A model generated the notes under the pieces. The model was not told where the DNA came from, did no database searches, and saw nothing but the letters and a program-made list of their open reading frames with translations. Shown piece after piece: positions 24,729 to 58,238 of a stretch of DNA of 64,000 nucleotides. The stretch spans positions 186,001 to 250,000 of the forward strand of contig QAYZ01000012.1 in the NCBI GenBank assembly GCA_003054655.1. The letters are read 5' to 3'. Position numbers and translations under genes: made by a program. Position 1 is the stretch's first letter; every line of letters starts with the position of its first letter. The stretch comes from Spartobacteria bacterium LR76. GTDB taxonomy: Bacteria; Verrucomicrobiota; Verrucomicrobiia; Chthoniobacterales; Terrimicrobiaceae.

Positions 24729-24768
24729 CCACCAGATCGGCGAACGAGGCTCCCCCACCGCGGAGTGG

Positions 24769-24841
24769 CGCGCCCGGCTGGGATCGAACCAGCGACCATC
24801 GGTTTAGAAGACCGGTGCTCTATCCACTGAGCTACGGGCGC
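24769..24841 (-). tRNA. tRNA-Arg(TCT)
   Basis: Reads on the minus strand as a standard cloverleaf: acceptor GCGCCCG/CGGGCGC, D stem GCTC/GAGC, anticodon loop CTTCTAA (anticodon TCT), T arm GCTGG-TTCGATC-CCAGC. Discriminator base G, no encoded CCA. The 5' 38 nt of the gene belong to the 42-bp direct repeat that ends the integrated element, so the gene's 5' half and promoter region are now element-derived. Confidence 0.95.
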
Positions 24842-24845
24842 AAAT
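24804..24845. repeat. Left attachment site of the integrated element
   Basis: This 42-base segment is identical to 58197-58238. It begins TTAGAAGACCGG and ends GGGCGCAAAT. It covers tRNA-Arg positions 1-38 plus four bases upstream, with the inner limit at the end of the anticodon loop. Integrase is immediately to the right. Confidence 0.93.
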
Positions 24846-24924: not shown

Positions 24925-26007
24925 TTGGAGATCGTGGATGAATCTGCACATCGGTCTTCCTATCTGAAGAAAGTGGGCCCGAATCTCTACCGGGCACCCA
25001 AAGGCACCTACTATCTTCTCGTGAAGAGAGGGGGCAAGCAGTTTCGTCGCAGCCTGCGAACCTCGGATCTTGCCCTGGCGAAGCGTCGCCTTCGGGAGTT
25101 CCAAGAAAGGGTGACAAAACTCTCTGTGGAGGGTGACAACAGGAACCTTCGTTTCGAGGACTTGGCCAACCAGTGGCTTGCGTCACGGAAAGCGGAACTG
25201 AAGCCCAGCTCCTTCAGTCGTCGCGAGGTGGCGCTGAAGGGATTGCTCCCATACTTGGGGAACCATCCCCTGCGGTCGATCGGGCAGAAGCATTTTGACG
25301 CCTGGAAGGCGGGACGAGGGGCGAAGATTTCTGCCCGTAGTTGGAATATCGAGGTGGAAACCCTCAAGCAGATCTTCGCCTACGCGAAAGAAGACCTGAA
25401 AATCCTCGTCGACAATCCCGCTGATACCCTCAAGAGGCGGAAGGTGAAGCAGGCGGGAATCGTCATCCCGAGCAAGGAACAGTTTCGAGCGCTTGTGCAG
25501 AATCTTCGGGAGGGACATCGTGCGACAGGGGAGGCCGCTGGTTTTGTAGAATTTCTGGCCTATTCTGGCTGCCGGAAGGAGGAAGCCGCCGAAGTGCTGT
25601 GGAACGACGTGAATTTTGCTCTGGGAACGCTTCTCGTCACGGGAGGGGAAAAGGGCACCAAAAATCACGAAGTGCGCACGATACCCCTTTTCCAGCCACT
25701 CCAACGCCTTCTGGAGACGATTCGGACGCGCAAACCTCAGGCCCAGGGGAGAATATTCGAGATTCGAGCAGCTCGGATGCAGATCCTTCGTGCGTGCGAG
25801 CGCTTGGGGTTGCCGCGTTTTGGGCACCATACCATGAGGCATTTTTTCTGCTCCAATGCCATTGAGGCAGGCTGCGATTTCAAGGTGATTGCCGGATGGC
25901 TGGGCCACAAGGACGGTGGTGTTCTCGTTGCGAGGACGTATGGCCATCTCCGCAACGAGCACAGCGAGGCCATGGCGCGTAGGATTACATTCGATGCCGC
26001 CGGTTGA
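24925..26007 (+). CDS. int: Tyrosine recombinase / integrase
   Basis: A 360-residue integrase. N-terminal arm-binding region (YRAPKGTYYLLVKRGGKQFR), core-binding domain ~75-160, catalytic domain ~180-350 with Arg217 (SGCRKEE), H302-x2-R305 (HHTMRHFF), His328 (GWLGHKD) and nucleophile Tyr339 (VARTYGHL). All catalytic residues are present, so the enzyme looks active. It starts at a TTG (24925); the first in-frame ATG lies further in. It mediates insertion at tRNA-Arg. Confidence 0.95.
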   Translation: MEIVDESAHRSSYLKKVGPNLYRAPKGTYYLLVKRGGKQFRRSLRTSDLALAKRRLREFQERVTKLSVEGDNRNLRFEDLANQWLASRKAELKPSSFSRREVALKGLLPYLGNHPLRSIGQKHFDAWKAGRGAKISARSWNIEVETLKQIFAYAKEDLKILVDNPADTLKRRKVKQAGIVIPSKEQFRALVQNLREGHRATGEAAGFVEFLAYSGCRKEEAAEVLWNDVNFALGTLLVTGGEKGTKNHEVRTIPLFQPLQRLLETIRTRKPQAQGRIFEIRAARMQILRACERLGLPRFGHHTMRHFFCSNAIEAGCDFKVIAGWLGHKDGGVLVARTYGHLRNEHSEAMARRITFDAAG

Positions 26008-27921: not shown

Positions 27922-28188
27922 ATGATGAAATACGAAAATACAGAAACGAAGGAGCAATCCTTTGAAAGCTTCCTCACTGGAGGCTTGGCGACAACCAGGC
28001 TGGGCTCATACGTGGGTATCCTTATTGCAGAGGCTCGCAGATGCCAGTTGACATGGGCAGAGGCGATTTCCGCCATTCGGTCTCATTGTCAATCCCCTGC
28101 GTTCCTCCAACAGGTTGAAAAGAAGGCTCTCGGGGCTTGGGACTACATGAACAAGCAGCAGGAGGTCGTTGGACATGGAAATATCTAG
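27922..28188 (+). CDS. Small unknown protein of the replication module
   Basis: An 88-residue soluble helical protein (FESFLTGGLATTRLGSYVGI ... TWAEAISAIRSHCQS). It ends 14 bases inside the primase-helicase gene, so the two are probably co-translated. No family recognised. Confidence 0.55.
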   Translation: MMKYENTETKEQSFESFLTGGLATTRLGSYVGILIAEARRCQLTWAEAISAIRSHCQSPAFLQQVEKKALGAWDYMNKQQEVVGHGNI

Positions 28189-30079
28189 TCAAGTCTCTGG
28201 AAACAAGGCGGTTGAGGATATTCTCGCGCTCTTGGGGCAGGAAGCAGTTTTGCTTCCTGTCTCAAAAAAGGCAAAAGCTCCTAGCCTCCCGAATTGGAAC
28301 AAGCTGGATCACTCCTGCATGCTCGATCCAGTTCACCTGGAATCGCTCACCCGTGGAAACATTGGCGTGCTTCTCGGAGCTCCCTCGGGAGGGCTTTGTA
28401 CGATCGATGTCGACGACGACGATCAGGCAGAGGCGTTTCTTGCCCTCAATCCACAACTCCAGGCTACCCTACAAACGAGAGGATGCCGGGGCCGAAACTT
28501 CTGGGTGCGTATGGATGGGGAGTATCCAGCACTCACAAAGTTGGTCATTCTGGAAGGCACTGCCTGGGGAGAATTCCGCTCCACAGGAGGACAAACCGTC
28601 ATCAGCGGAGAGCACCCGAAAGGCATGCCCTACCAATACATCTGCAAGCAACCTCCAGTCAGATTGCGCTTTGAAGAGCTCAATTGGCCTCAAAACCTCA
28701 AGCTACCATGGATCAAAGATCCTTTTGAGGTGCTTTCTGAGAAAGAAGGGCCGTTGATTGATATCCGGGCAAACGGGGTAACTCGCCTAAACAGTAAGGC
28801 CATGGCAGAGAAGTTGTTGATGGAGAATCACTTCGACTACGATCGACAGGAGAAGAATCTCTACCAATATGATCCCGAAAGAGGCGTCTACTCTGTAGCT
28901 GGCGAGGAATTGCTGGACTTCGTGTCCCAAGAAATCAAACGGGTTGCAGACGAGACAGGTAGAGAGGATCTGACGATCAATCGGAACAATCACCAAATTG
29001 CTTCCATTGTCGACTCCATGAGGGCAAAACTGGCCAGAACGAGGCTGAGCAACCCTGACGCAGTTGAAAATGCCATCGTTGTAAAGAACGGGGTGCTGGA
29101 ACTGACGGCTGAAGGTGGCGTACTGACGACCTTTCATCCTCGGCACAGGAGTCGCAACCAAATTCCGATCGATTTCAATCCAGAGGCAAGGTGTAACCGC
29201 TTCTTGAATGAAGTTTTACGGCCCGTTCTGTCGGAAGACGACATTGAAGTCCTTCAAACGTACATGGGAAGCGTCCTTCTAGGGCGAAACACGTCCCAGC
29301 GGATCCTCCTACTCTGTGGACCTGCGGGTAGCGGAAAATCTACGGTCGTGGAGATCATCGAGCGCCTAATTGGACTCGAGAACACGGCTGAGCTTCGCAT
29401 GGATCATCTGGATGGACGGTTCGAGATGTATTCGGCTCGCAACGCGACCTTGTTGACAGGGAAGGATGTTCGCTCTGACTTCTTGGGAAAGAAGACCGCT
29501 AGCATGTTGAAGAAGCTGTCTGGGGGTGATGCCATCCGTGTCGAACAAAAGGGGGGCGCGTCTTTTGATGTCGCCAAGCCCTTTCACATCATCATCACGG
29601 CAAATACCAAGCTGACGATAAACCTCGATGCAGATATTGATGCGTGGAATCGACGGCTTGTCCTGATTGAATTCCAGCCTGCGCGTAATCGGCTTGTTGT
29701 GCCTGAGTTTGCGCAGGTGCTATTAAGAGAGGAGGCCTCGGGCATACTTGACTTCTTCGTGGAGGGAGCAAGAAAGTTTCTGGAACACGGTATCACCCTG
29801 TCCCAGGAACAGAAAGATAAGACCTACAGTATGCTTCTGGAGTCGGATTCTATCCGATGCTTCGCTGAGACGGCGGTGGAACCAGCCGCTGATAAAGCCG
29901 TCAGTTCATCGGAACTGTATGCGCAATACTCGGAGTTTTGTGAAACCCGTAGTTGGGTTGCCCGACCTAAGTCATCCTTTTGTAAGGAGATAGCAGCGCA
30001 TCTATTCGAGCTCTACGGAGTGCGTAGCTCGCATGATATCGGTACAAATCGGGGGTATCGAGGAATAGGAGTTAAATAA
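28175..30079 (+). CDS. Prim-Pol primase fused to SF3 (D5/P4-type) helicase
   Basis: A 634-residue replication protein. Residues ~25-160 resemble the bifunctional primase/polymerase domain (LLPVSKKAKAPSLPNW, catalytic acidic TIDVDDDDQAEA, and WGEFRSTGGQTVISGE). A D5_N-like region follows, then an SF3 helicase domain with Walker A LLCGPAGSGKSTVVEII (~residue 383) and later ITANTKLTINLDADIDAWNR. Such fusions start replication of phages, satellites and integrated plasmids. The ATG at 28175 lies 10 bases after AGGAGG. It suggests the excised element can replicate. Confidence 0.88.
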   Translation: MEISSQVSGNKAVEDILALLGQEAVLLPVSKKAKAPSLPNWNKLDHSCMLDPVHLESLTRGNIGVLLGAPSGGLCTIDVDDDDQAEAFLALNPQLQATLQTRGCRGRNFWVRMDGEYPALTKLVILEGTAWGEFRSTGGQTVISGEHPKGMPYQYICKQPPVRLRFEELNWPQNLKLPWIKDPFEVLSEKEGPLIDIRANGVTRLNSKAMAEKLLMENHFDYDRQEKNLYQYDPERGVYSVAGEELLDFVSQEIKRVADETGREDLTINRNNHQIASIVDSMRAKLARTRLSNPDAVENAIVVKNGVLELTAEGGVLTTFHPRHRSRNQIPIDFNPEARCNRFLNEVLRPVLSEDDIEVLQTYMGSVLLGRNTSQRILLLCGPAGSGKSTVVEIIERLIGLENTAELRMDHLDGRFEMYSARNATLLTGKDVRSDFLGKKTASMLKKLSGGDAIRVEQKGGASFDVAKPFHIIITANTKLTINLDADIDAWNRRLVLIEFQPARNRLVVPEFAQVLLREEASGILDFFVEGARKFLEHGITLSQEQKDKTYSMLLESDSIRCFAETAVEPAADKAVSSSELYAQYSEFCETRSWVARPKSSFCKEIAAHLFELYGVRSSHDIGTNRGYRGIGVK

Positions 30080-30082
30080 ACA

Positions 30083-30388
30083 ATGATTAATCGCAATAAC
30101 ATTAAAAATATGAAGACGAAAGCAGATGGCAGCAAGGTGGGGCAATGCCCCGCCTGCGCAGCTTTCGGCGGTGATAAAAAGGGGGAGCATCTATTTGTCT
30201 CTGACAGCGGGGGATACAGTTGCATTGCCCATCCTAGAGATAAAGAGCACAACAGGCTCATAATGGAGCTCCTCGGAGGTCCGACGGAAACGAAAACTTC
30301 ACCTGAAAGATATCCGCGTGTGACGGTTCGGCCCAAAATCACTCCAGAGCGGAAAGTGATATGTTCTTTCGGGCGAATGCTCTTGTAA
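30083..30388 (+). CDS. CHC2-like zinc-finger protein of the replication module
   Basis: A 101-residue protein immediately after the primase-helicase. GQCPACAAFGGDKKGEHLFV then GGYSCIAHPRDKEHN gives a C-P-x-C ... C-x-x-H layout like the CHC2 zinc-binding domain of DnaG-type primases. It probably provides the DNA-binding finger that the Prim-Pol protein lacks, as a separate polypeptide. Inference from pattern. Confidence 0.6.
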   Translation: MINRNNIKNMKTKADGSKVGQCPACAAFGGDKKGEHLFVSDSGGYSCIAHPRDKEHNRLIMELLGGPTETKTSPERYPRVTVRPKITPERKVICSFGRMLL

Positions 30389-30401
30389 TCGTTGAAAGAA
30401 A

Positions 30402-30450
30402 AAGCCGTGCGCGTTCGCCCTCGCGTTTATGAGGGTGAACGCACGGGCTT
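30402..30450. terminator. Long imperfect hairpin after the replication genes
   Basis: AAGCCGTGCGCGTTCGCCCTC pairs with GAGGGTGAACGCACGGGCTT around an 8-base loop, ~20 bp with two small bulges, 13 bases after the zinc-finger gene. No U-run follows; it may end the replication transcript or be a cis structure. Confidence 0.4.
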
Positions 30451-31064
30451 GTCCATAGGCCTTCGGACGTGTCGGACGGGTGATTCTCTCTGTCCGTTCA
30501 TTGAAGAACACAATGACGGGAATGGGAGGTTTTCCTCGGATTCAAATTCAGGCGTCCGTGCCGTCCGCAATCGTTGCGTGAGCATGGTATAACTAATGGT
30601 GATCCTATACCTCTCTTTGAATAATAATTCCGCTGAGCCAAAAAGCGTGCAAAAAAGATCAGGGTAAGCTATTCTAATATATAGATAGCAGGGGGTCCGG
30701 ATGCGATATCACCATTTTCATAGCGTCTCCGAAAATTATGTAGAGCTTACCCCCAAATGCGTTTCAGCTCTACATAATTTATTTGGCGTAAGTTGCTGTA
30801 GATAAGATCCTTGCTCCGAAGCTCTACAAAAATTACGATTTGCACATTCATTTTTTGTGAAAACGAGCACGCTTTTTACTAAAAAGTGGTATGCTGGAAT
30901 GGGCTGCTGGACGATGAACTATGAGCCCCTGAGAGGCGCTGATCGGCCCGAAAATGGCTCTCCATGAGTGCAAAAAGCGACCAGCTTAGATGGTTCGGCG
31001 AAATATATCACTTTCCGAAAAACACCCCGTCATTCCAACGCAGGAACCGACGCTTGAGATCAGG
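30451..31064. other. Intergenic region of the element, possible origin
   Basis: 614 bases between the replication module and the XRE regulator with no supported gene. Apart from the 15-bp inverted repeat at 30733-30780 and its partial third copy I see no clear structure. Confidence 0.4.
30733..30780. repeat. 15-bp perfect inverted repeat in a gene-free region
   Basis: Arms AAATTATGTAGAGCT (30733-30747) and AGCTCTACATAATTT (30766-30780) flank an 18-base spacer. A third partial copy, AGCTCTACAAAAATTA, lies at about 30820-30835. This stretch is AT-rich and lies between the replication module and the XRE gene. It is a candidate replication origin or operator. Confidence 0.45.
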
Positions 31065-31289
31065 CTAGATGTCCGGACAGCCCTTGAGGAGATCATCCCA
31101 GGTGCACTTTAGAGCTCGCCTGAGGCGTGCAGCGATTTTCACGGTGGGGATCTTCTCCCCTTTCTCCACCTCTTGAAGGAATCGGCGGCTCATATCCGCC
31201 CTTTCTGCCAGTTGCTCCTGAGTCAGACCGTTTTCGGTTCTCAGTCGGTTTACGTTTTTCCCGAAATTCTGGCTGAACTCATCTGTCAC
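31065..31289 (-). CDS. XRE-family helix-turn-helix repressor
   Basis: A 74-residue protein that is nearly all HTH_3: FGKNVNRLRTENGLTQEQLA, ERADMSRRFLQEVEKGEKIP, then TVKIAARLRRALKC. Similar to restriction-control (C) proteins and small phage repressors. Divergent from the PEP-CTERM gene across a region with a perfect palindrome. Likely regulates itself and neighbours. Confidence 0.88.
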   Translation of the reverse strand: MTDEFSQNFGKNVNRLRTENGLTQEQLAERADMSRRFLQEVEKGEKIPTVKIAARLRRALKCTWDDLLKGCPDI

Positions 31290-31323
31290 TTGCTCAGCGT
31301 GTCAGGATTCGCGCTTTCCGAAC

Positions 31324-31345
31324 GCGCGCTATAGCGCGCTTTTTT
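31324..31345 (+). promoter_or_regulatory. Perfect palindrome GCGCGCTATAGCGCGC followed by T6
   Basis: A 16-base self-complementary sequence (31324-31339) plus TTTTTT, between the divergent XRE and PEP-CTERM genes. The form fits an intrinsic terminator reading rightward, but no upstream rightward gene ends here, so an operator for the XRE protein is equally likely. Confidence 0.45.
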
Positions 31346-31384
31346 GCTCGATTTTACCTTGCGGCTCTCTATTCTTTTGCCTGC

Positions 31385-32227
31385 ATGGCCTCCCTACATA
31401 TTGATCACTTTACAGGCTGCCGGTTGAGAGCGGAGGGACTTACGGCATTTCTCCTCCTGCTGCTCATGGGAGTTGTGTTCATTCCTTCATCGCATGGACA
31501 GGTGCTGATCTCTGGCACTCAAACGATTTCGCAGAACTTCAATGCAGTCAGCGGGCAGACTCTTCCCTCGGGATGGCGCATCGTCTACGGGCAGCCCAGC
31601 CCTGTCTGGGGAACTGCTCAAACCCAGACAACCTATGCCGCGTCCAGTGGTACCCCTACATCGAATGGCACGTATTTGTGGTCAAACTCACAGGGAACCG
31701 ATAAGGCCATTGGGGTACTCTCGCAGATCGCCACCCACAGCAGCGTTCTGATGCAGGGAGTCAATGTCTCAGGATCTGCGCTGAACACCTGGACCATCAG
31801 CTATTCCATGGAGGAGTATTATCGGGATAACTCCGACTCACGGGTCGACTTTTACTACAGCCTGGACGGGAGCAATTGGATCTCGGTGTCGCTGGGTCGC
31901 CAATACATGGGCGGGACGAAATACAACTCCCCAGTAGGGTATCTCTTCAACGCTCCTCAGACTGTGACCAAGGCAGCCTTCAGCTTTACCACTCCTGATG
32001 TGAGTTCCGCGAAGTCGGTGTACTTCCGGTGGGATATCTACGTAGCAGGGCCTCTCTCCCAAGGGTGGGGGTTGGACGATGTCGCGATTACCCCGAGCTA
32101 TGTCAGCGTACCCGAGCCGTCGGTTCTTGGCTTCCTCGGGATGGGTGGACTGGCAGGCATTCTCACGATCAGCACCCATTTCTTTCGACAGAAAACACAA
32201 ACCACGAACCAAAGCTTCACATCATGA
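31385..32227 (+). CDS. PEP-CTERM sorting-domain protein
   Basis: A 280-residue secreted protein: N-terminal signal (LTAFLLLLLMGVVFIPSSHG), a beta-rich middle with a pattern of carbohydrate-binding-like domains (SDSRVDFYYSLDGSNWISVS), and a C-terminal sorting tag VPEPSVLGFLGMGGLAGI plus basic tail (FFRQK). PEP-CTERM proteins are cleaved and anchored by exosortase, normally encoded on the host chromosome. Finding one in a mobile element is unusual. Its stop overlaps the start of the next gene (ATGA). Confidence 0.82.
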   Translation: MASLHIDHFTGCRLRAEGLTAFLLLLLMGVVFIPSSHGQVLISGTQTISQNFNAVSGQTLPSGWRIVYGQPSPVWGTAQTQTTYAASSGTPTSNGTYLWSNSQGTDKAIGVLSQIATHSSVLMQGVNVSGSALNTWTISYSMEEYYRDNSDSRVDFYYSLDGSNWISVSLGRQYMGGTKYNSPVGYLFNAPQTVTKAAFSFTTPDVSSAKSVYFRWDIYVAGPLSQGWGLDDVAITPSYVSVPEPSVLGFLGMGGLAGILTISTHFFRQKTQTTNQSFTS

Positions 32228-32403
32228 TCACGGGTTTCCTTCTATTCTTTGCCGCAATGGCGCTTTTGGGAATTGGCTCGCATGCTTCGGGCGTTCCTCA
32301 TCTTTTCTACATATTCTCAATCGCCATCGCGAAGGTGCTGATTATCGGGATCGTGATCGGGATATTCCTGGTCTACCTGTTCACTGGCTGGTGGGCTCCG
32401 TAG
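32224..32403 (+). CDS. Small two-helix membrane protein
   Basis: A 59-residue very hydrophobic protein (LLFFAAMALLGIGSHASGV; AKVLIIGIVIGIFLVYLFTG) coupled to the PEP-CTERM gene by ATGA. No family recognised; may be a partner of the PEP-CTERM product. Confidence 0.55.
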   Translation: MITGFLLFFAAMALLGIGSHASGVPHLFYIFSIAIAKVLIIGIVIGIFLVYLFTGWWAP

Positions 32404-32584
32404 CCTCGGAGGCATGCCATGTGAAACGTACCCCCTCCCCCTGAGTTTCCCTCTTTTGCTGGTATAATTCTGTGAACGCAACCGTTTAGGTGCTGGCGCG
32501 AGTCAGTGCCTCGGTTGATCTCAATCGCATGCGGGAGCAGCCGGTGGCTGTTTTTCTCCATGCCAACCACAGAAAGGAAATCGT

Positions 32585-33076
32585 ATGGCACTCAAGCTCA
32601 TTGCCAGCTACTCGAAACGCCTCGGCCTTCCTGCCTACTCGTCCCACCAGTTCTCCGTCACCATCGAGACGGAATTGACTGGCAACGACGACATCAGCGA
32701 GGAAAGCGCCCGGCTTTACCAAACGCTTCAGCAGAGCGTGGACGATCAAATCCGTCAGCAGGGATTTGTCCCTGTCGAGGGAGGAGGTCACAATGGCCAT
32801 TCCCGCAATGGCGTCAATGGTCACCATGACAACGGAAATTGGCTGTGCTCGGACAAGCAGAAGGATCTCATCCTGAAGCTCATCGAGACGCACAATCTGG
32901 ACAAAGCCGAAATCGAATCCCTCGCTCGCGAGCGGTTTGATAAAGGCGTCAAGCAACTGAACAAGCTGGAGGCGTCTGGTCTCATCGACGAGATGCTGGA
33001 ACGTGCAGGCGAGAAACCCACTCGCGGCACCAATCGCCGAACACGGCCAGTGTACAGAAATGGAGCTGGACGATGA
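32585..33076 (+). CDS. Hypothetical protein coupled to a RecB-like nuclease
   Basis: A 163-residue protein. Residues ~1-60 look like a small beta-rich domain (SSHQFSVTIETELTGNDD), followed by a Gly/His/Asn-rich linker (GGGHNGHSRNGVNGHHDNG) and a helical C-terminal domain (KDLILKLIETHNLDKAEIES). It overlaps the nuclease gene by four bases (ATGA), which indicates co-function. I do not recognise the family. Confidence 0.6.
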   Translation: MALKLIASYSKRLGLPAYSSHQFSVTIETELTGNDDISEESARLYQTLQQSVDDQIRQQGFVPVEGGGHNGHSRNGVNGHHDNGNWLCSDKQKDLILKLIETHNLDKAEIESLARERFDKGVKQLNKLEASGLIDEMLERAGEKPTRGTNRRTRPVYRNGAGR

Positions 33077-33882
33077 ACCGCATCCTCCAAGAGCTGAAGC
33101 AGACCGTTTCAGCCTCCAGGCTCAACACGTTTCACCAATGCCGGTTGAAGTTCTTCTTCCGGTATGTGGCGGAAATCCAGAAGCCGGGTACTCCAGCCTT
33201 GTTCGTTGGGAAAACTGTCCACTCCGTCTTGCAAGGCTGGAACCTTGCGAGATGGAGGGGAGAACCGAGAGGACAGGAGTTCTTCCGTGCCATGTTCGAC
33301 ACACTTTGGAGTGATCCAGAAAGCAATGCCGACATCAGGTGGAGAGGGGAGGAGGATCAGCAAAAAGCTACGGCTTGGAGCATGATCGAGGCCTACTTTC
33401 AGCAAACTCCCATTCCGAAGGGCGAGAAACCCCAGGGAGTGGAGGTGGCGATAGAGGCCGATCTGATCCATCGCGGACTGACCAAGCTGGTGGGCATCAT
33501 CGATCTGGTGCGACCTGGGGGTAGGATCGTGGACTTCAAAACCACGTCCATCACCCCCAGCCCAGAGCGAACATCCCATCAGAACGGGCTGCAACTGACC
33601 TGTTACGGGCTTCTCTATCGGGAGGCCACGGGACAGAGGGAGTCAGGCTTCGAACTGCACCACTTGGTAAAGCTCAAACAGCCCAAGGTGGTGATCGTCG
33701 AAGTCGGCAAGGTCACCCAGGCCCAGGAATCCCGCCTCTATCGCAGCGTCGAAAGCTACCTCACCGGGCTGGAGAATCAGGACTTTGTCCCTTCTCCCGG
33801 CCTGAGCTGCATGGGATGCGAGTATTTTCGCGAGTGCAAGGCGTGGGCCGGGAACTACGTGCAGAGAAAACTGGCTGCGTAA
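33073..33882 (+). CDS. PD-(D/E)XK nuclease, RecB/Cas4-like, with probable iron-sulfur cysteines
   Basis: A 269-residue nuclease. Motifs: His50 in GKTVHSVL, Asp144 in GIIDLVRPGG, D154-x-K156 in IVDFKTT, and the Q-x-x-x-Y helix (NGLQLTCYGLL). Four cysteines, Cys23 and Cys246/249/255 (CMGCEYFREC), have the spacing of the iron-sulfur cluster of Cas4/AddB nucleases. The family acts on DNA ends in recombination, replication or CRISPR adaptation; no CRISPR genes are in the window. Likely acts with the coupled upstream protein. Confidence 0.88.
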   Translation: MNRILQELKQTVSASRLNTFHQCRLKFFFRYVAEIQKPGTPALFVGKTVHSVLQGWNLARWRGEPRGQEFFRAMFDTLWSDPESNADIRWRGEEDQQKATAWSMIEAYFQQTPIPKGEKPQGVEVAIEADLIHRGLTKLVGIIDLVRPGGRIVDFKTTSITPSPERTSHQNGLQLTCYGLLYREATGQRESGFELHHLVKLKQPKVVIVEVGKVTQAQESRLYRSVESYLTGLENQDFVPSPGLSCMGCEYFRECKAWAGNYVQRKLAA

Positions 33883-34036
33883 TCAGGCGCACTCTGAATC
33901 GCTTCTGCGGCTTGTGCCATGACACAGACCCTCCCGGGTTCGGCACTCTAGTGCAGTAGGCGCGCAAATCCCCAATCGAGAGTTGAGGCGAAGACTCGGT
34001 GTCGTCGGCTCGGCTCGTTTCTCCAAGGAGATCGCC

Positions 34037-34126
34037 ATGAACGGAAAATGGCTACCCGTCGTTCTGGCTGCCGCCATGGCAGTCATCACGTTCGTCAAAG
34101 AAATCAACAAGACCAACCAGAAGTAG
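34037..34126 (+). CDS. 29-residue hydrophobic peptide
   Basis: An ATG with a good AAGGAG site opens a 29-codon frame: MNGKWLPVVLAAAMAVITFV then KEINKTNQK. One hydrophobic helix with a short basic tail, followed immediately by an intrinsic terminator. This is the form of a type I toxin or a small membrane peptide. Function unproven. Confidence 0.5.
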   Translation: MNGKWLPVVLAAAMAVITFVKEINKTNQK

Positions 34127-34133
34127 AACCATC

Positions 34134-34158
34134 AAGGCCGGTATTCCCGGCCTTTTTT
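34134..34158 (+). terminator. Intrinsic terminator after the small peptide gene
   Basis: 8-bp perfect stem AAGGCCGG / CCGGCCTT with a 5-base loop, followed by a run of T. Confidence 0.88.
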
Positions 34159-34174
34159 ACAAAAAACCATTCCA

Positions 34175-34948
34175 ATGAATATCATCGAAGACCCCCAACC
34201 CCGGGTGCAGCGACCTGCGCCAGGGTTGCTTCTCCATTGTGGAGCCCAACTCGTCACCCGAAAGAAGCTCCTGGCCATCCCCACGCCTGAGGAAACCGAT
34301 ACCTGGTTCCCGCTGAGTCACAAAACCATCCTCACTGAGGTGGAAGATCAACTGCGGGCTACGGGATTTCTGATCCAGCAGGAAACTCATGCTCTGAGCC
34401 ATGGAGGGGCTCGTTACTTTGGCGTTCTCTCCGTCACGACCAAGGACCGTGGCAAATCGGACTTCGGCTGGGTGGTCGGCCTGCGAAATTCGCACGACAA
34501 GACCTTCCCGGCGGGACTGGTGGCTGGCTCCCGGGTTTTCTGCTGTGACAATCTCGCCTTCTCAGGAGAGGTGAAGATCAGCCGAAAACATACCCGCTAC
34601 GCCTACCGAGACCTGCGCCACCTGACAGCACGTGCCGTTGGGCAACTTGGGGAGAAATTTCTCGGGCTGGATCGACGAATTGCCGCCTACAAGGCCGAGA
34701 GCGTAGCCGACTGGCTGGCGCATGACGTCACGATCCGAGCGGTCGACTGTGCGGCCATCACCCCAGCCCAGATCCCGAGTGTTCTGAAGGAGTGGAGAGA
34801 GCCATCGCATGAGGATTTCGCCCCTCGCAGCGCATGGAGTCTCTTCAACGCCTTCACAGAGGTATACAAGACGACCAACCCTCACACTGCCCTGCGCCGT
34901 AGCGAAGCCCTCTATGGCCTGTTCGACGGCCTGGTTGGTCTGAACTGA
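34175..34948 (+). CDS. DUF932 protein
   Basis: A 257-residue protein of the DUF932 / phage-plasmid-like family. Signature parts: FLIQQETHALSHGGARYFGV, VGLRNSHDKTFPAGLVAGSR, and VFCCDNLAFSGEVKISRKHT. DUF932 proteins are widespread in phages, plasmids and integrative elements with no settled function. Flanked by terminators on both sides, so it is a single-gene transcript. Confidence 0.85.
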   Translation: MNIIEDPQPRVQRPAPGLLLHCGAQLVTRKKLLAIPTPEETDTWFPLSHKTILTEVEDQLRATGFLIQQETHALSHGGARYFGVLSVTTKDRGKSDFGWVVGLRNSHDKTFPAGLVAGSRVFCCDNLAFSGEVKISRKHTRYAYRDLRHLTARAVGQLGEKFLGLDRRIAAYKAESVADWLAHDVTIRAVDCAAITPAQIPSVLKEWREPSHEDFAPRSAWSLFNAFTEVYKTTNPHTALRRSEALYGLFDGLVGLN

Positions 34949-35729: not shown

Positions 35730-36779
35730 TTACGCGCGTAATAGAAGCAAAAGAAACTTAATAAGCCGTTGATCGCCGTGAGTACAATGTTTTAAAAGCA
35801 TTGAAAAAACCGGGACGCGTAAAAAATCAATGCCTGTCATTTCCATGAGAACAAGATGGTGAAGATATCGAGCAAGTCCCTCAAGCAATACGGTTTCGGT
35901 TATAGTCTCAACGATAATGTCCTCTTTCCACCAATTTACAAACGGTCTCAGCCATTCCGAAAATTGCGGGTTTAATATGTCATCGCAATATCGTTCTCTT
36001 ATGTGAAAGATTTGATCCCACGTTTCGCATTCCGGAGAGGCAGGCACAAAGTCAATTTCCCATTTTGGTAACCTTCCGTCATTCGCGCCAAACGGCTTGC
36101 TATTTTCGAGGCATATAGACGTTTTGTTCTTTCCGAAAGGGTTAAAAGCACGTCTCCGTGTTCCGTCAGGGGCAAAAAGAACATCCTGGGCTAGTTTGTA
36201 ACTCCTATTACACCTCGTTCCCATAGGAACCAAGTTTTTCAGATTTACGGCTGCAAATGTATAGCGACTTTCAGCCAGAAAGTGGTCTTCGTCTTCTCGT
36301 GGCGATCCAGGAAAACTAAAAAATTCGTAGCCGCAAAATGGACAAATGTGCTTATGAGTGCCCTTCCAAATAATCTTATATTGAGCATCCCGAATTCCGA
36401 GTTCGCTCAATAAGCCAAATGCAAACTCAAAAAGATTTTTAATTGGCCGCTGAATGGCTGTCGGTAAATTTTGAAGCGAATCGCAATTTGAATTGCATGA
36501 CAGCAATCCCTCAATATCGTTCTGTTGTTGTAAAGCCGCCGAAACCTTTGCCTTCTGACTTAAATCAATTTTTCCAAAAGCAATTTGATAACTCCGGAGC
36601 CTTTTCTTAAGGCCAGGTCTTCCCTTTAGTTGATCTCTCCATTTTTCTGGAATACATTCCGGCCAATGTAGTCCTCTCTTCTTTAGCCACAATCCCGCGT
36701 GAATGTCCTCGAGAATTTTGAACAGGCAATCATGCAGCCAGTTATCGGCTATTGCCTCGATTGGATAGCCGCAAAGCAT
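35730..36779 (-). CDS. HNH nuclease of the methylase-ATPase operon
   Basis: A 349-residue protein. The HNH/treble-clef domain is at ~146-195: Cys146-x2-Cys149 (ICPFCGYEF), EDEDHFLAESRY (Asp165-His166), NLKNLVPMGTRCN (Asn182, Cys190). The start ATG at 36779 overlaps the stop of the ATPase gene (TAATG). ATPase plus HNH is the Septu (PtuA-PtuB) pattern; the long N-terminal helical region (1-140) and C-terminal half are not like small PtuB proteins. Probably the DNA-cutting component. Confidence 0.82.
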   Translation of the reverse strand: MLCGYPIEAIADNWLHDCLFKILEDIHAGLWLKKRGLHWPECIPEKWRDQLKGRPGLKKRLRSYQIAFGKIDLSQKAKVSAALQQQNDIEGLLSCNSNCDSLQNLPTAIQRPIKNLFEFAFGLLSELGIRDAQYKIIWKGTHKHICPFCGYEFFSFPGSPREDEDHFLAESRYTFAAVNLKNLVPMGTRCNRSYKLAQDVLFAPDGTRRRAFNPFGKNKTSICLENSKPFGANDGRLPKWEIDFVPASPECETWDQIFHIRERYCDDILNPQFSEWLRPFVNWWKEDIIVETITETVLLEGLARYLHHLVLMEMTGIDFLRVPVFSMLLKHCTHGDQRLIKFLLLLLRA

Positions 36780-38401
36780 TAATCGTTCTGCGAAGGCAAG
36801 TTTTCCGCCCGGTCCGCCAAAAAGGCCTTTTCTACTGAATTGCCCAATTTTTTCATTCCGAGGCGAATAGCTTCTGGGTCGTCGCTTTGCATGAGGGCTT
36901 CTATTTGATCTCTCGCCACCGCAGATATTGGAGGTCGAATTCCAAAGCAATCATTTAGAATACTGTCGAATGCACTGCCAAATGTCTCTATGCTCGGTCG
37001 AGAGGCTTCGATCTTTCCTTCAGTTTTTCTGAAGATCAATACATTTTCACGCGGCATATCTGAGGGAACAAAAGGTGCATGCGTTGTCAAAAGGCAATCT
37101 TGCTGTGCTACTAAACTGGCATCCCTTCTTATCCCGTTTTCCGTAGGCAGATCAAGCAATCTCGAAATAAATTCAACCCGCCATTTGGGGTTAAAATGTG
37201 ACTCAGGCTCGTCCAGTAAGAAAAGGACATTAGGAAATGAAGTCATGGCCATTGTTCCTAGAATTTGTGCTAGTTGGTGTTCGCCATCAGATAACGACAC
37301 GTAGTCGACTGGTTCGCCTTCGCCTATCGGTGAGAAGCAAACACGCTCAAAACGAAACACCTTTTCTTCATCCTGTGGTTCTGCTAAACGTGACGCGAAA
37401 CGCCTCGTCCTACTCTCTCTTTTAAATCTCTCTCTTGTCGCTTTGGGAATTGCGAGATCGTTGAGCATCGAAAATTTATGAAAGCTCGAATACAGATCAA
37501 GTGTTTTAGCCCAAAATTCCCGGAAAGCTGTGCGCACTTGTTCGTCTACAAAGAAATCAAAAGTATACGTCTCCGTTTTTTCGTCGTAGTCGTGGCAGGT
37601 CGCACACCGAGTGAAAAAATCGAGATATGACTCCAATTCCTCCGTAATCTGAATGCCCTTTCGTTTGCTTCCTGCGATATTAATCTTGGGATAACTGGAA
37701 TGCGCGAGTTGAATAATGCATCTGAATGAATGCAAGTTACTGATTGGAGCGGCACTCAGTAATGCCGCACGAATTTCCTCGGTTCCTAAAAGAAGATTAG
37801 CCGCCAAAACTTCAATATGTGTTCCATAATCAATCAGCATAAGACGTGTATCAGGAACAGCTCGGTCTTCATTTCTTCGTTTAAAGGCGGCCTCAGTTAC
37901 ATCTTTGGCATATCCGCTTCGGCTAACTAAAAACGGCAAACTCAATGTTTCGTTACCGCCGGAGGAATATGCGATGATTTTCTGAGGAAGGAGTTTTACC
38001 GTTTCAGAATCAGATTCGTCGCATTTAATCCAATCATCTGAGGAAGCAAGCCTTCTCTCAATCGTCAAAATTGGTTTTTTGTTGGAAATCCTAACTCGCT
38101 TTAGGCGAACGAATTCTCGTTCTTCTCCCCCCTCTGGCAGGAGAGAATAGTCTAGCCGAAACTGAAGTTCTGAGTTGCTGACCACTCTCTCCTCCGGAGA
38201 GGAGCAAGCGTTCCAAACCAATTGAAAAATCTCAGCTAGAACTTGTAGAACTTGCGATTTTCCTGCTCCGTTCGGCCCGATTAAACACAACGGTTTGAAA
38301 TTTCGACCAATGTCATCCGGAGGATGCAAGTCGGCAATGAAGCCGTCCAAAAGCCCCCCACAGGATTCGGCCTTAATAATGTGAAGTCGATGAAGTTTCA
38401 T
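36779..38401 (-). CDS. ABC/RecF-type AAA ATPase associated with the methylase operon
   Basis: A 540-residue SMC/OLD/PtuA-like ATPase. Walker A GPNGAGKS (42-49), ABC-type signature YVSLSDGEHQLAQIL (~375), Walker B VLFLLDEPESHFNPKW (~400), His switch CLLTTHAPFVPSDM (~445). No coiled coil as long as in SMC and no Toprim domain. The start overlaps the hsdS stop (TAATG). Similar ATPases are annotated as 'restriction-system-associated'. It likely controls or powers the HNH nuclease in the next gene. Confidence 0.88.
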   Translation of the reverse strand: MKLHRLHIIKAESCGGLLDGFIADLHPPDDIGRNFKPLCLIGPNGAGKSQVLQVLAEIFQLVWNACSSPEERVVSNSELQFRLDYSLLPEGGEEREFVRLKRVRISNKKPILTIERRLASSDDWIKCDESDSETVKLLPQKIIAYSSGGNETLSLPFLVSRSGYAKDVTEAAFKRRNEDRAVPDTRLMLIDYGTHIEVLAANLLLGTEEIRAALLSAAPISNLHSFRCIIQLAHSSYPKINIAGSKRKGIQITEELESYLDFFTRCATCHDYDEKTETYTFDFFVDEQVRTAFREFWAKTLDLYSSFHKFSMLNDLAIPKATRERFKRESRTRRFASRLAEPQDEEKVFRFERVCFSPIGEGEPVDYVSLSDGEHQLAQILGTMAMTSFPNVLFLLDEPESHFNPKWRVEFISRLLDLPTENGIRRDASLVAQQDCLLTTHAPFVPSDMPRENVLIFRKTEGKIEASRPSIETFGSAFDSILNDCFGIRPPISAVARDQIEALMQSDDPEAIRLGMKKLGNSVEKAFLADRAENLPSQND

Positions 38402-39987
38402 TATGGAAGTTGTTTGAACACAAGGTGGCGTCTTTGCTTGTCGAAAATCTGTTCAAGCAAGGCCGGCTTTTCAGACAACATTGAAAATATTTTATCTTTC
38501 AAAGCGTCGTAACTCGACGTCGATCTCTCTTGGAGTTGTTCAAATGTAAACTCGCTTCCAGAAAATGAGCGAATTATATCGTCGATAGATTCCGCATTTT
38601 TTTTCGGCTTTGAACGTAACTTTTTCATAGTTAAAATGGAGCTCTTAATCGCTAATGTCCGATTCAGCAAAATCGAAGCTGGCTCATCGCTTGGGTCTTG
38701 CGGGGCTAGCAGACCGGCCAGAGCGTCACTAAGTATCGTTTGGTCGAGTTTGTTGAGAGCAACAATAGCGGAATTGTAAGCATTCTCGGCGCTTTCTATT
38801 CTCTTAAATGCTAGATCAAGGTTTTTAACTATAGCGATCTGCTCATCTACCAAAGGTATCGAGAATGAAAGGGAAAGTAACTGTGATTGGGTAAATCCCA
38901 CCCCACTTTCAGAAACCCCTGCTTTTAGCTGATCCAACTCTTTTAAAGCCGAAGGAGTATTCAATAGATACGCGAGGAATTTAGGATCGCAATGCGACCG
39001 TTTGGCGCGAAGGCGATAAACGGTGTCGGATACCATCAATTTCGGTAGGGTGTCTGTAACAAAGGCTGTGACCCCTGCGCGTGCACGTGGACCTTTTCTT
39101 GTTATCAAAATATCTCCCGTCTTTATCTCCAATAGAGGGCGAGGCTCAATACGCGCTGGCAATGCTTTATTCTCGGCGCCATTGAAAATCATCGGCTGTA
39201 TCGCTGTAGTCTTAATTATGCCCCATTCATTTCCTTGGACGGGATGGTTATGGCATCTAGGACTCCAACCTTGCTGAAGATTCTCCACGACATCACGAAG
39301 ACTGACGACCGACCAGTTTTGTATTCTATCCGTATTCAAAGCGGATAAAGACCCAGAAAATGCCCTGGCTAAAAGCGATTTGCGACTTTGGTCTAAATTG
39401 TGGGGTATTCCGGCGAGGTGCTCCCGGGCCTTTTGGCTTTTAATATAAGCATGATCCAACTGCGCGGCGATTCGACGCTGCTCTGCGAGCGGTGGCAGTG
39501 GAAGTTTTAAACCGGCCATTTGTTTCCACTTTATGCGGGGCAAACTAACACCCTGTGATCTAATCGAGCCAAATTCCGCTATTTGCGGCGAAGCGAGCAG
39601 TTGTGCCAAAAATTTCGGATCAGCTGCTTGAGTTGGTTTTAAGACAAGAATGTCTGTTGAGCAAATCCCACTAAAATCTACCTGTACAACTTTCCGGAGA
39701 TATGGTCGAAGTTTACCAAAAAGAATATCGCCGCTATAGAAAACATTTTTACTGCTTTTAACATCACCTGCCCGCCCATTGCCCAACAGGCGGCGGGTGC
39801 CCCCACCTTCAATATGTTCCAGGCCGATATATTTCTCGTTCGGTGCGTCTCTGGGGTCAATTTTTTCGGTTCGCAATTCTGCTAGACGATCGAGATTACA
39901 AACAGCCCAACCGAGAGGAAGATTAATCAGCGGAAAGCATGAGTCGTCCGGATTTAAAGAGTGTTTTTTCCGAGGAATATCACTCAT
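38401..39987 (-). CDS. hsdS: Type I specificity subunit HsdS with extra C-terminal domain
   Basis: A 528-residue protein with two target-recognition domains. TRD1 covers ~20-160 (KNVFYSGDILFGKLRPYLRK), first conserved helix ~170-210 (PLPPLAEQRRIAAQLD); TRD2 ~225-385 (KTGDILITRKGPRARAGV), second helix ~390-440 (VDEQIAIVKNLDLAFKRIES). Typical HsdS ends near residue 440; here ~85 more residues follow (SIDDIIRSFSGSEFTFEQLQ ...). The extension may dock the ATPase. Coupled to hsdM by ATGA. Confidence 0.9.
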   Translation of the reverse strand: MSDIPRKKHSLNPDDSCFPLINLPLGWAVCNLDRLAELRTEKIDPRDAPNEKYIGLEHIEGGGTRRLLGNGRAGDVKSSKNVFYSGDILFGKLRPYLRKVVQVDFSGICSTDILVLKPTQAADPKFLAQLLASPQIAEFGSIRSQGVSLPRIKWKQMAGLKLPLPPLAEQRRIAAQLDHAYIKSQKAREHLAGIPHNLDQSRKSLLARAFSGSLSALNTDRIQNWSVVSLRDVVENLQQGWSPRCHNHPVQGNEWGIIKTTAIQPMIFNGAENKALPARIEPRPLLEIKTGDILITRKGPRARAGVTAFVTDTLPKLMVSDTVYRLRAKRSHCDPKFLAYLLNTPSALKELDQLKAGVSESGVGFTQSQLLSLSFSIPLVDEQIAIVKNLDLAFKRIESAENAYNSAIVALNKLDQTILSDALAGLLAPQDPSDEPASILLNRTLAIKSSILTMKKLRSKPKKNAESIDDIIRSFSGSEFTFEQLQERSTSSYDALKDKIFSMLSEKPALLEQIFDKQRRHLVFKQLP

Positions 39988-41426
39988 TTTGACAATTCCT
40001 GCTCTAGGCTTTCCATTTCTTCCAAAGCAGCCCGGAGTTTGCTCATAACGTTCACAAGTAATTTCTCTGGAGCGGGAAGCTCAGCATTATTAACGGCCGC
40101 CGCTTCATCTCTCAGCCAGCCTATATCGAGATTATCTCCCCGCGATTTAATTTCTTCGCGTGTAAAGCAACGAAAACGTTCCGAAACTTTTCGCTTTGTT
40201 AGGCCGTAGGAATTCTTTCCGAAGGCATTCTCAAATTCTGCAAGGTGAGCTCGCGTGAACGGAGTGCGCTTTCCAAAAGCAGGCATATTTGCCCGCAAAT
40301 CAAAGATCCAAACGATTTTTGTATTCTTTTTGTCAGTTTTCCCTCGTGTAAAAAAGAAAACATTTGCCTTTACGCCTTGCGCATAAAATATCCCTGTAGG
40401 CAATCGAAGGATCGTGTGTAGATTGCACTTCTCCATTAAATCGGCGCATACCTCTGCCGCTACACTTCCTTGAAGATCGGGGATAACGACAGCTGCCCTT
40501 CCTCCTGGACGCAGTCCGTTGTAGACGTGCTGTAAAAAACAAAGCTGCTTGTTGCTTACCCGCCAATTAAAATCAGTTCTATTTGGTAATCCGCCACCTT
40601 TTTTTGTTCCGAAAGGTGGGTTGGTTAAAATTAGATGTGCTCTCGATAAATTTTGCCCCGCTTCGCCAAGAGTATCTCCAAGTATTATGGGGCTATGAAT
40701 GCCATGCAGCATGGCATTCATTAGAGCGAGTCGATGGGTTTTGGGAACCAACTCCACCCCAATAAATGCCTTTTCTGTCTGGAAATATTTCTCCGTTTTT
40801 GTGAGAGATGCTAGATTCTTGGTTTTTTGTTTGATATATCGGTCGGCGGCGACCAAAAATCCAATTGTTCCGCATGCCGGATCTTGAATTATTTCACCCG
40901 GCTCAGGATTGGTTAAATGAACCATGCATTCGATCAATGGCCTTGGTGTAAAATACTGTCCCGCTCCAGCTTTGCTCTCTGTTGAGTTTTTCTCTAGCAA
41001 TCCCTCGTAAACGTCGGCTAACACTGATTCCTCCCGTGCCGCATACCAATCGATGTTGCCGAACTCAGTAACTAGCAATGAAAGATGCGCTGGATTAGTT
41101 AGGGATGTATCTGCGTCTGTAAAAATCTCTTTAATCCTTCCTTTCGTATTTGAGCCCAAATTTTTAAGTAATTCCTTATAAAAGGTGAATTGATGTAGAT
41201 TGCTTTTCGATGCTAGATCGCGCCACCGATAGCCAGTAGGGAGGGCGCTTTCCGAGCCTGATTCTTCCGCCATCCGCAAAAATAACAGGTATGTCAATTC
41301 CGTAACGTATTCTGGATAAGTAATCCCACTGTCACGCAGGATATTGCACAAATGCCAAAGCTTGGCGACAATGTCTTTTGCAGGAAAGTCAAGTCGGATC
41401 TGGTTGTTTGGAATGTTTTTTGGCAT
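39984..41426 (-). CDS. hsdM: Type I DNA methyltransferase subunit HsdM
   Basis: A 480-residue N6-adenine methylase. N-terminal helical HsdM_N (LWHLCNILRDSGITYPEYVT), then the SAM motif DPACGTIGFL (182-191; Ile replaces the usual Gly) and catalytic NPPF (269-272), with GQYFTPRPLIECMV before them. First gene of a four-gene, fully overlapping operon hsdM-hsdS-ATPase-HNH. No hsdR gene is found anywhere in the element. Confidence 0.95.
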   Translation of the reverse strand: MPKNIPNNQIRLDFPAKDIVAKLWHLCNILRDSGITYPEYVTELTYLLFLRMAEESGSESALPTGYRWRDLASKSNLHQFTFYKELLKNLGSNTKGRIKEIFTDADTSLTNPAHLSLLVTEFGNIDWYAAREESVLADVYEGLLEKNSTESKAGAGQYFTPRPLIECMVHLTNPEPGEIIQDPACGTIGFLVAADRYIKQKTKNLASLTKTEKYFQTEKAFIGVELVPKTHRLALMNAMLHGIHSPIILGDTLGEAGQNLSRAHLILTNPPFGTKKGGGLPNRTDFNWRVSNKQLCFLQHVYNGLRPGGRAAVVIPDLQGSVAAEVCADLMEKCNLHTILRLPTGIFYAQGVKANVFFFTRGKTDKKNTKIVWIFDLRANMPAFGKRTPFTRAHLAEFENAFGKNSYGLTKRKVSERFRCFTREEIKSRGDNLDIGWLRDEAAAVNNAELPAPEKLLVNVMSKLRAALEEMESLEQELSK

Positions 41427-58196: not shown

Positions 58197-58238
58197 TTAG
58201 AAGACCGGTGCTCTATCCACTGAGCTACGGGCGCAAAT
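58197..58238. repeat. Right attachment site, with displaced tRNA 5' half
   Basis: Identical to 24804-24845. It carries tRNA-Arg positions 1-38 with its original upstream flank (58239 on), but not the 3' half, so it cannot give a functional tRNA. Confidence 0.92.

What the first reader, a model, noticed from the sequence alone, without database searches (positions are those of the whole stretch)
35730..41426. HsdR-less methylase operon with an ABC-type ATPase and an HNH nuclease in the restriction position
Seen: hsdM, hsdS, an ATPase with Walker A, signature, Walker B and His-switch, and an HNH nuclease, all overlapping (ATGA, TAATG, TAATG), so the four products are translated as a unit. No HsdR-type translocase is found in the element. 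Known: Septu pairs a PtuA ATPase with a PtuB HNH protein, and restriction-associated AAA ATPases occur near hsdMS genes. Inference: the methylase marks self DNA and the ATPase-HNH pair is the restricting effector, i.e. a hybrid of type I modification and Septu-like attack.
Basis: partly seen in the sequence, partly recalled or inferred. Interest (0 to 1): 0.9.

Follow-up and report, generated by a model that had tools for sequence, protein, structure and literature searches.

The report
HsdR-less methylase with PtuAB-like nuclease
A DNA-marking enzyme that normally works with a motor-driven cutter is encoded here in one operon with an ATPase-nuclease pair resembling a known anti-phage weapon; relatives in many bacteria keep the four genes together with or without the usual cutter, which suggests that the marking enzyme controls the weapon.

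Summary
In detail: four overlapping genes (hsdM, hsdS, an ABC ATPase and an HNH protein; 41426-35730, minus strand), with no hsdR in the window. The ATPase is a strong member of TIGR04435 'restriction system-associated AAA family ATPase', so the link to restriction genes is already known to curators. The HNH protein has no Pfam or NCBIfam family; its predicted fold is PtuB-like, and the ATPase's is PtuA-like.

Across 86 loci the four genes form a conserved unit. hsdR is optional: next to it in 28, absent in 43, with at least 12 switches on the ATPase tree. Two Pseudomonas genomes carry the unit with no hsdR detected anywhere. New links: HsdS has a C-terminal domain found once in each of 22 genomes, always in the HsdS next to the ATPase; one distant relative fuses HsdS to the ATPase; HsdR-less relatives swap target-recognition domains while the rest stays conserved.

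Most likely the methyltransferase senses self versus non-self and gates a PtuAB-like effector that replaces or backs up HsdR. Whether the nuclease cuts invading DNA or a host RNA such as tRNA is open. This is a new variant of a known kind, not Septu in the strict sense.

The parts
39984..41426 (-). hsdM: type I N6-adenine DNA methyltransferase subunit, 480 aa; first gene of the operon
   Evidence: Pfam N6_Mtase 9.9e-64 and HsdM_N 1.9e-9; 54-56% identical to HsdM of the nearest relatives, 23-28% to the genome's other two HsdM
38401..39987 (-). hsdS: specificity subunit, 528 aa, two target-recognition domains plus a C-terminal extension
   Evidence: Pfam Methylase_S 6.3e-18, two stretches; overlaps hsdM by 4 nt
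38404..38586 (-). C-terminal ~60-aa domain of HsdS (residues 468-528), found only in HsdS proteins linked to this ATPase family
   Evidence: exactly one match in each of 22 genomes, always directly before the ATPase gene; 4 of 4 confident hits in 388 phylum genomes are TIGR04435 loci
36779..38401 (-). PtuA-like ABC ATPase, 540 aa, member of TIGR04435
   Evidence: TIGR04435 436 bits against cut-off 300; AlphaFold2 pLDDT 91.7; top Foldseek hits Septu PtuA 8eea and retron PtuA
35730..36779 (-). PtuB-like HNH nuclease, 349 aa
   Evidence: no NCBIfam hit and no Pfam family above its cut-off; AlphaFold2 pLDDT 95.4; VIA-align top three all PtuB, Z 8.3-8.9, next unrelated 4.2; HNH residues invariant in 53 sequences

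Best explanation
The operon encodes a methyltransferase-gated PtuAB-like effector. HsdM and HsdS form the sequence-specific N6-adenine methyltransferase that marks the host's sites (established for the families). The ATPase and HNH form a PtuA-PtuB-like complex docked on HsdS, probably through its extra C-terminal domain (inferred from co-occurrence and one fusion). While DNA carries the mark the complex stays silent; when the methyltransferase meets its site unmethylated on incoming DNA, ATP-dependent rearrangement licenses the HNH nuclease (inferred). The nuclease then cuts the DNA (slightly favoured) or a host RNA such as a tRNA (possible). HsdR is an optional extra: with it the locus is a full type I system plus this effector; without it, as here, the effector is the only nuclease.
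For: (1) Linkage: in 86 loci the four genes keep together; hsdS-ATPase are within 10 nt or overlapping in 76 of 79 pairs (59 with the 4-nt overlap) and ATPase-HNH in 72 of 79, even where hsdM has moved downstream. (2) hsdR optional: 28 with, 43 without, 14 undecided; at least 12 switches on the ATPase tree. (3) Works without HsdR: P. fluorescens FW300-N2E3 and P. chlororaphis EA105 give no match to three HsdR queries, and their only Methylase_S domains lie in this hsdS. (4) The HsdS C-terminal domain occurs once per genome in 22 genomes, only in the ATPase-linked HsdS. (5) HsdS-ATPase fusion, 1133 aa, in L120. (6) HsdR-less relatives exchange TRDs (15-23% identity) while HsdM, ATPase and the C-domain stay 83-95% identical, as expected if sequence recognition is under selection. 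(7) Purifying selection on all genes in HsdR-less pairs, dN/dS about 0.04-0.48, highest in hsdS with swapped TRDs. (8) Fold matches to PtuA and PtuB. (9) In HsdR-less loci HsdM distances track ATPase distances (Spearman 0.91, against 0.76 in HsdR-plus loci).
Against: No experiment and no methylation data. Five Larkinella species keep hsdM-hsdS-ATPase without the HNH gene, and Spirosoma telluris keeps ATPase-HNH with only a C-terminal remnant of hsdS, so the four genes are not absolutely inseparable. In the 28 loci with hsdR the pair cannot be the only restriction effector. Retron-Eco7 and Septu EcB88 PtuAB act on tRNA-Tyr (PMC11555353, PMC13096335), which would make the output abortive rather than restriction. 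TRD exchange could be neutral. The fusion is one metagenome-assembled contig.
Confidence: 0.5

Rival explanations
1. Guard or decoy: HsdMS is the silencer and the ATPase-HNH pair is an abortive-infection toxin released when a phage anti-restriction factor attacks the methyltransferase, as PrrC is silenced by its linked type I enzyme and PtuAB by retron RT-msDNA.
For: [quoted passage not shown] PtuAB of retron-Eco7 is a toxin silenced by RT plus msDNA and depletes tRNA-Tyr (PMC11555353). Same folds here. The 28 hsdR-plus loci fit a guard added to a full type I enzyme.
Against: HsdR-less loci have no restriction activity left to guard. TRD exchange among HsdR-less relatives makes little sense for a decoy whose DNA specificity does not matter. 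Spirosoma keeps ATPase-HNH without hsdM and with only an hsdS remnant, so hsdMS is not obviously an obligate antitoxin, though that locus may be decaying.
Confidence: 0.3
2. Passenger: a Septu-like pair and a solitary methyltransferase share an operon for co-transfer but act independently.
For: Defence genes cluster on mobile elements, and this operon lies on a tRNA-Arg-integrated element. Septu works without a methylase.
Against: A dedicated C-terminal domain on the linked HsdS only, translational overlap of hsdS with the ATPase in nearly all loci, an HsdS-ATPase fusion, and correlated divergence.
Confidence: 0.1
3. Decaying type I system: hsdR was lost and the rest is a remnant, effectively an orphan methylase with dead neighbours.
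For: hsdR is lost or gained repeatedly; some relatives have broken hsdM or ATPase frames (L038, L076).
Against: All four window genes are intact, with invariant catalytic residues in ATPase and HNH. HsdR-less clades in Nostocales and Oscillatoriales keep all four genes under purifying selection. HsdR-less copies also sit on plasmids.
Confidence: 0.1

Closest known systems
TIGR04435 'restriction system-associated AAA family ATPase' loci (NCBIfam)
   Same: The ATPase scores 436 bits against a 300-bit cut-off; the family lies beside restriction genes and NCBI-annotated copies bear this name.
   Different: The name says nothing of function. The HNH gene has no named family and is annotated 'hypothetical protein' next to such ATPases. 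No text description of the four-gene unit or its HsdR-less form was found in the papers held.
Septu (PtuA-PtuB)
   Same: ABC ATPase plus HNH nuclease; fold matches to PtuA 8eea and, for the HNH, to retron PtuB; His-to-Asn spacing of 16 residues in both (H166/N182 here, H75/N91 in PMC13096335).
   Different: PtuB sequence similarity is marginal (PADLOC PtuB1 E 0.0008). Septu has no methylase; here the pair is locked to hsdMS and the nuclease is about 90-140 aa longer than the PtuB chains it matched (206-258 aa).
Retron I-A (Ec78/Eco7, Ec83) PtuAB
   Same: PtuA-PtuB folds; effector held by a nucleic-acid-binding partner (RT-msDNA).
   Different: The partner here is a DNA methyltransferase complex, not a reverse transcriptase.
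Type I restriction-modification with a linked anticodon nuclease (EcoprrI-PrrC)
   Same: An ABC-ATPase-based nuclease encoded in an hsd operon, with type I subunits as candidate regulator.
   Different: PrrC is one protein with a different nuclease and is linked to a full hsdRMS; here ATPase and HNH are separate and hsdR is optional.
OLD/ABC ATPase plus nuclease modules reported in RM-like and BREX systems (PMC12839542, citing Krishnan et al. 2020)
   Same: General idea of an ABC ATPase paired with HNH and other nucleases next to modification genes.
   Different: I could not read Krishnan 2020 (not held), so it may already describe this exact arrangement; the HsdS C-terminal domain, the fusion and the hsdR switching were found here.
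MADS (methylation-associated defence system)
   Same: HsdM- and HsdS-like MAD2/MAD5 hits; methylation without canonical HsdR (from memory).
   Different: Hits are far below the cut-offs (85 of 720 and 53 of 400 bits), and the other MADS genes were not seen here.

Membership tests
TIGR04435 | HMM score over the curated cut-off (300 bits) | tested here: met
   436.4 bits, residues 1-532
TIGR04435 | located in a restriction-modification gene cluster | tested here: met
   hsdM and hsdS directly upstream, overlapping
Septu | PtuA ABC ATPase with intact ATPase motifs | tested here: met
   PADLOC PtuA1 1.4e-43; Foldseek top hits PtuA; motifs invariant
Septu | PtuB HNH partner recognisable by family HMM | tested here: inconclusive
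   PtuB1 HMM only E 0.0008, other candidate-system HMMs better; fold matches retron PtuB at Z 8.3-8.9, which is modest
Septu | stand-alone two-gene system | tested here: not met
   the pair is embedded in an operon with hsdM and hsdS in nearly all relatives
Retron I-A | reverse transcriptase and msr-msd beside ptuAB | tested here: not met
   the gene upstream of the ATPase is hsdS and no reverse transcriptase was seen in the operon; the msr-msd RNA was not searched for
Type I restriction-modification | HsdM and HsdS | tested here: met
   Pfam
Type I restriction-modification | HsdR translocase-nuclease | tested here: not met
   none in the window; none of the family's kinds in the genome; two others beside other hsdM/hsdS
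Type I restriction-modification | methylation of a bipartite site | not testable with these tools
   needs long-read methylome data
MADS | MAD2, MAD3 and MAD5 over their cut-offs | tested here: not met
   85 of 720, 14 of 420 and 53 of 400 bits
EcoprrI-PrrC type guard | ABC-ATPase nuclease silenced by linked type I subunits | not testable with these tools
   needs toxicity assays with and without hsdMS

The most novel reading that the evidence does not exclude
A restriction-like immune system in which a type I methyltransferase, without any translocating HsdR, senses unmethylated DNA and directly switches on a PtuAB-like effector through a dedicated HsdS C-terminal domain. This would make HsdMS a further kind of sensor for PtuAB, alongside stand-alone Septu and retron msDNA.
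Probability: 0.4. Interest if true: 0.78.

Novelty: new variant of a known kind. Interest (0 to 1): 0.6.

Why it matters
Type I restriction is thought to need the HsdR motor. A widespread form in which hsdMS is instead coupled to a PtuAB-like effector would show that the methyltransferase core can work as an interchangeable self/non-self sensor, would join the Septu/retron effector family to restriction-modification, and would mean that some 'orphan' hsdMS loci annotated as modification-only are defence systems. The HsdS C-terminal domain gives a sequence handle to find them and a point to test the coupling.

Tried and rejected
hsdR elsewhere pairing with this hsdMS: the genome has two HsdR genes, each beside its own hsdM and hsdS (L039, L040), and their HsdM are only 23-28% identical to this one. 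Remnant of hsdR beside the operon: none. Foldseek of the HNH model against the PDB gave nothing significant; only the second look by VIA-align separated PtuB from the rest, so that fold match is modest. Sequence search of solved structures with the HNH alignment gave only chance hits. MADS, BREX and retron were considered and set aside on missing genes. Phage genomes hold no relative of the ATPase, and viral contigs four, all with an hsdR-like gene beside or near them. Papers: no text mention of TIGR04435 or of a 'restriction system-associated AAA' ATPase; Krishnan 2020 is not held. Bias: the 80 loci are the best of 428 by similarity to the window, so the with/without-hsdR ratio is not a census.
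Full report
Observation. HsdM and HsdS are recognised by Pfam. The ATPase belongs to NCBIfam TIGR04435, 'restriction system-associated AAA family ATPase', at 436 bits against a cut-off of 300, so the neighbourhood of this ATPase with restriction genes is known to curators. The HNH protein has no NCBIfam hit and no Pfam family above its cut-off; its nearest PADLOC models are candidate systems PDC-M62B and PDC-M01B, with PtuB far weaker. Residues typical of both enzymes are invariant among relatives.

No hsdR here. The window holds no HsdR homologue. The genome has two genes with HSDR_N, each next to other hsdM and hsdS genes whose HsdM are only 23-28% identical to this one, while HsdM of true relatives are 46-56% identical. 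Searches with the HsdR kinds that accompany this family, singly and as an alignment, find nothing better than E 2e-5, a short match to helicase positions.

Relatives. A scan of 84,980 species genomes found 428 relatives of the ATPase; the best 80 were read, with six more from the window's phylum. Clustering of the encoded proteins, the window's included, gives four families of almost the same size, ATPase in 85 loci, HNH in 81, HsdM in 77 and HsdS in 79, and an HsdR family in 27 (a fragment in L038 makes 28). Missing members mostly lie at contig ends. hsdS and the ATPase overlap or lie within 10 nt in 76 of 79 pairs, ATPase and HNH in 72 of 79. In several gammaproteobacteria and Bacteroidota the order is hsdS-ATPase-HNH-hsdM, so the hsdS-ATPase-HNH block stays together even when hsdM moves.

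hsdR is optional. With enough flank to judge, 43 loci lack hsdR and 28 have it; the tree of the ATPase needs at least 12 changes of that state. HsdR and HsdM co-vary strongly (Spearman 0.94), HsdR and ATPase less (0.73, and 0.53 within the near clade), as if a type I backbone and the ATPase-HNH cassette were joined more than once. In HsdR-less loci HsdM and ATPase distances correlate at 0.91, against 0.76 in HsdR-plus loci. Twenty genomes with HsdR-less loci, the window's included, were searched for HsdR elsewhere: P. fluorescens FW300-N2E3 and P. chlororaphis EA105 have none by three queries, and their only Methylase_S matches are in this hsdS. HsdR-less copies also occur on complete plasmids of Priestia and Hymenobacter. 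The sample was chosen by similarity to the window, so these proportions are not a census.

Coupling of HsdS to the ATPase. The HsdS proteins carry a conserved C-terminal domain of about 60 residues beyond the usual end. A model of it matches exactly once in each of 22 genomes, every time directly before the ATPase gene, although those genomes hold some thirty other HsdS genes (read). Several rows of the model come from these very loci, so the test lies in the absence of matches in the other HsdS. In 388 genomes of the phylum all four confident hits lie in TIGR04435 loci; three more TIGR04435 loci were missed, so the domain diverges. One distant relative, a planctomycete MAG (L120), has HsdS and ATPase in one open frame of 1133 aa with two Methylase_S domains and AAA_21, followed by the HNH gene. 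It is a single assembled contig.

Specificity turnover. Among HsdR-less Nostocales (L042, L050, L057, L064) both target-recognition domains are only 15-23% identical while the C-terminal domain is 83-87% and, in the pairs compared, HsdM and ATPase are 86-95% identical; L047 and L098 differ in TRD2 alone (16% against 80-93% elsewhere in HsdS). All genes are under purifying selection. Exchange of recognition domains is what one expects where the sequence recognised matters, which favours sensing of target methylation over a pure decoy.

Folds. AlphaFold2 models are confident (ATPase pLDDT 91.7, HNH 95.4). Foldseek puts Septu and retron PtuA at the top for the ATPase, with low TM-scores normalised to the query (about 0.3-0.4) but E-values down to 2.5e-14. 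For the HNH protein Foldseek finds nothing significant, but VIA-align ranks three retron PtuB chains first (Z 8.9, 8.4, 8.3), clear of the next (4.2). The catalytic His and Asn of Septu PtuB, H75 and N91 (PMC13096335), are 16 residues apart, as are H166 and N182 here.

Mechanism. PtuAB of retron-Eco7 is a toxin silenced by RT-msDNA that depletes tRNA-Tyr (PMC11555353), Septu EcB88 cuts tRNA-Tyr (PMC13096335), and DNA was reported for another Septu (cited in PMC11555353). PrrC, another ABC-ATPase nuclease, is silenced by a linked type I enzyme (PMC2610378). The pattern suggests that the effector is held and released by a nucleic-acid-binding partner. Here the partner is HsdMS. I favour gating by the methylation state of the target site (0.5) over a guard of HsdMS (0.3). 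Shown: gene content, conservation, optional hsdR, the ATPase-linked HsdS domain, fold resemblance. Inferred: physical docking, gating, the nuclease's substrate, and defence itself.

Novelty. The ATPase family and its link to restriction genes are known, and ABC ATPase-nuclease pairs in RM-like systems have been reported (PMC12839542, citing Krishnan et al. 2020, which I could not read). What I did not find described is the conserved HsdR-optional four-gene unit, the PtuB-like identity of its unnamed HNH protein, the ATPase-linked HsdS domain and the fusion. I therefore call it a new variant of a known kind.

Noticed in passing
window 24804-24845 and 58197-58238: A perfect 42-bp direct repeat of part of tRNA-Arg(tct) (24766-24841), with a tyrosine integrase at 24925-26004 beside the first copy: the likely ends of a ~33-kb integrated element that carries the operon; G+C is about 44-47% across the operon against about 55-58% in the kilobases on either side.
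   Followed up: partly
window 28169-34948: The same element holds a D5/Prim-Pol primase-helicase (28169-30079), a small HTH regulator (31065-31289), a PD-(D/E)XK exonuclease-like protein (33073-33882) and a weak DUF932 match (34175-34948): phage-like replication genes.
   Followed up: partly
L120:278-3679: HsdS-ATPase fusion of 1133 aa in a planctomycete MAG, followed by the HNH gene.
   Followed up: yes
L059, L060, L063, L065, L066: Five Larkinella species keep hsdM-hsdS-ATPase with a shorter ATPase and no HNH gene next to it, under purifying selection in the pair tested, between two copies of an unrelated gene. Unexplained.
   Followed up: partly
L107:7721-10577: Spirosoma telluris keeps only the C-terminal part of HsdS as a 99-aa frame before intact ATPase and HNH genes; no hsdM nearby.
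   Followed up: partly
L052, L075, L049, L121 and others: Accessory genes sit inside or beside these operons: Mrr_cat with HARE-HTH and RAMA, DUF1016/YhcG nuclease, a NucS-like protein with DUF5655, and a gene between hsdM and hsdS annotated as a GIY-YIG nuclease.
   Followed up: partly
L040 (own genome, contig C9): Another type I locus of this genome has a GmrSD-like gene between hsdM and hsdS, and a DarT-Macro (DarTG-like) pair between hsdS and hsdR.
   Followed up: partly
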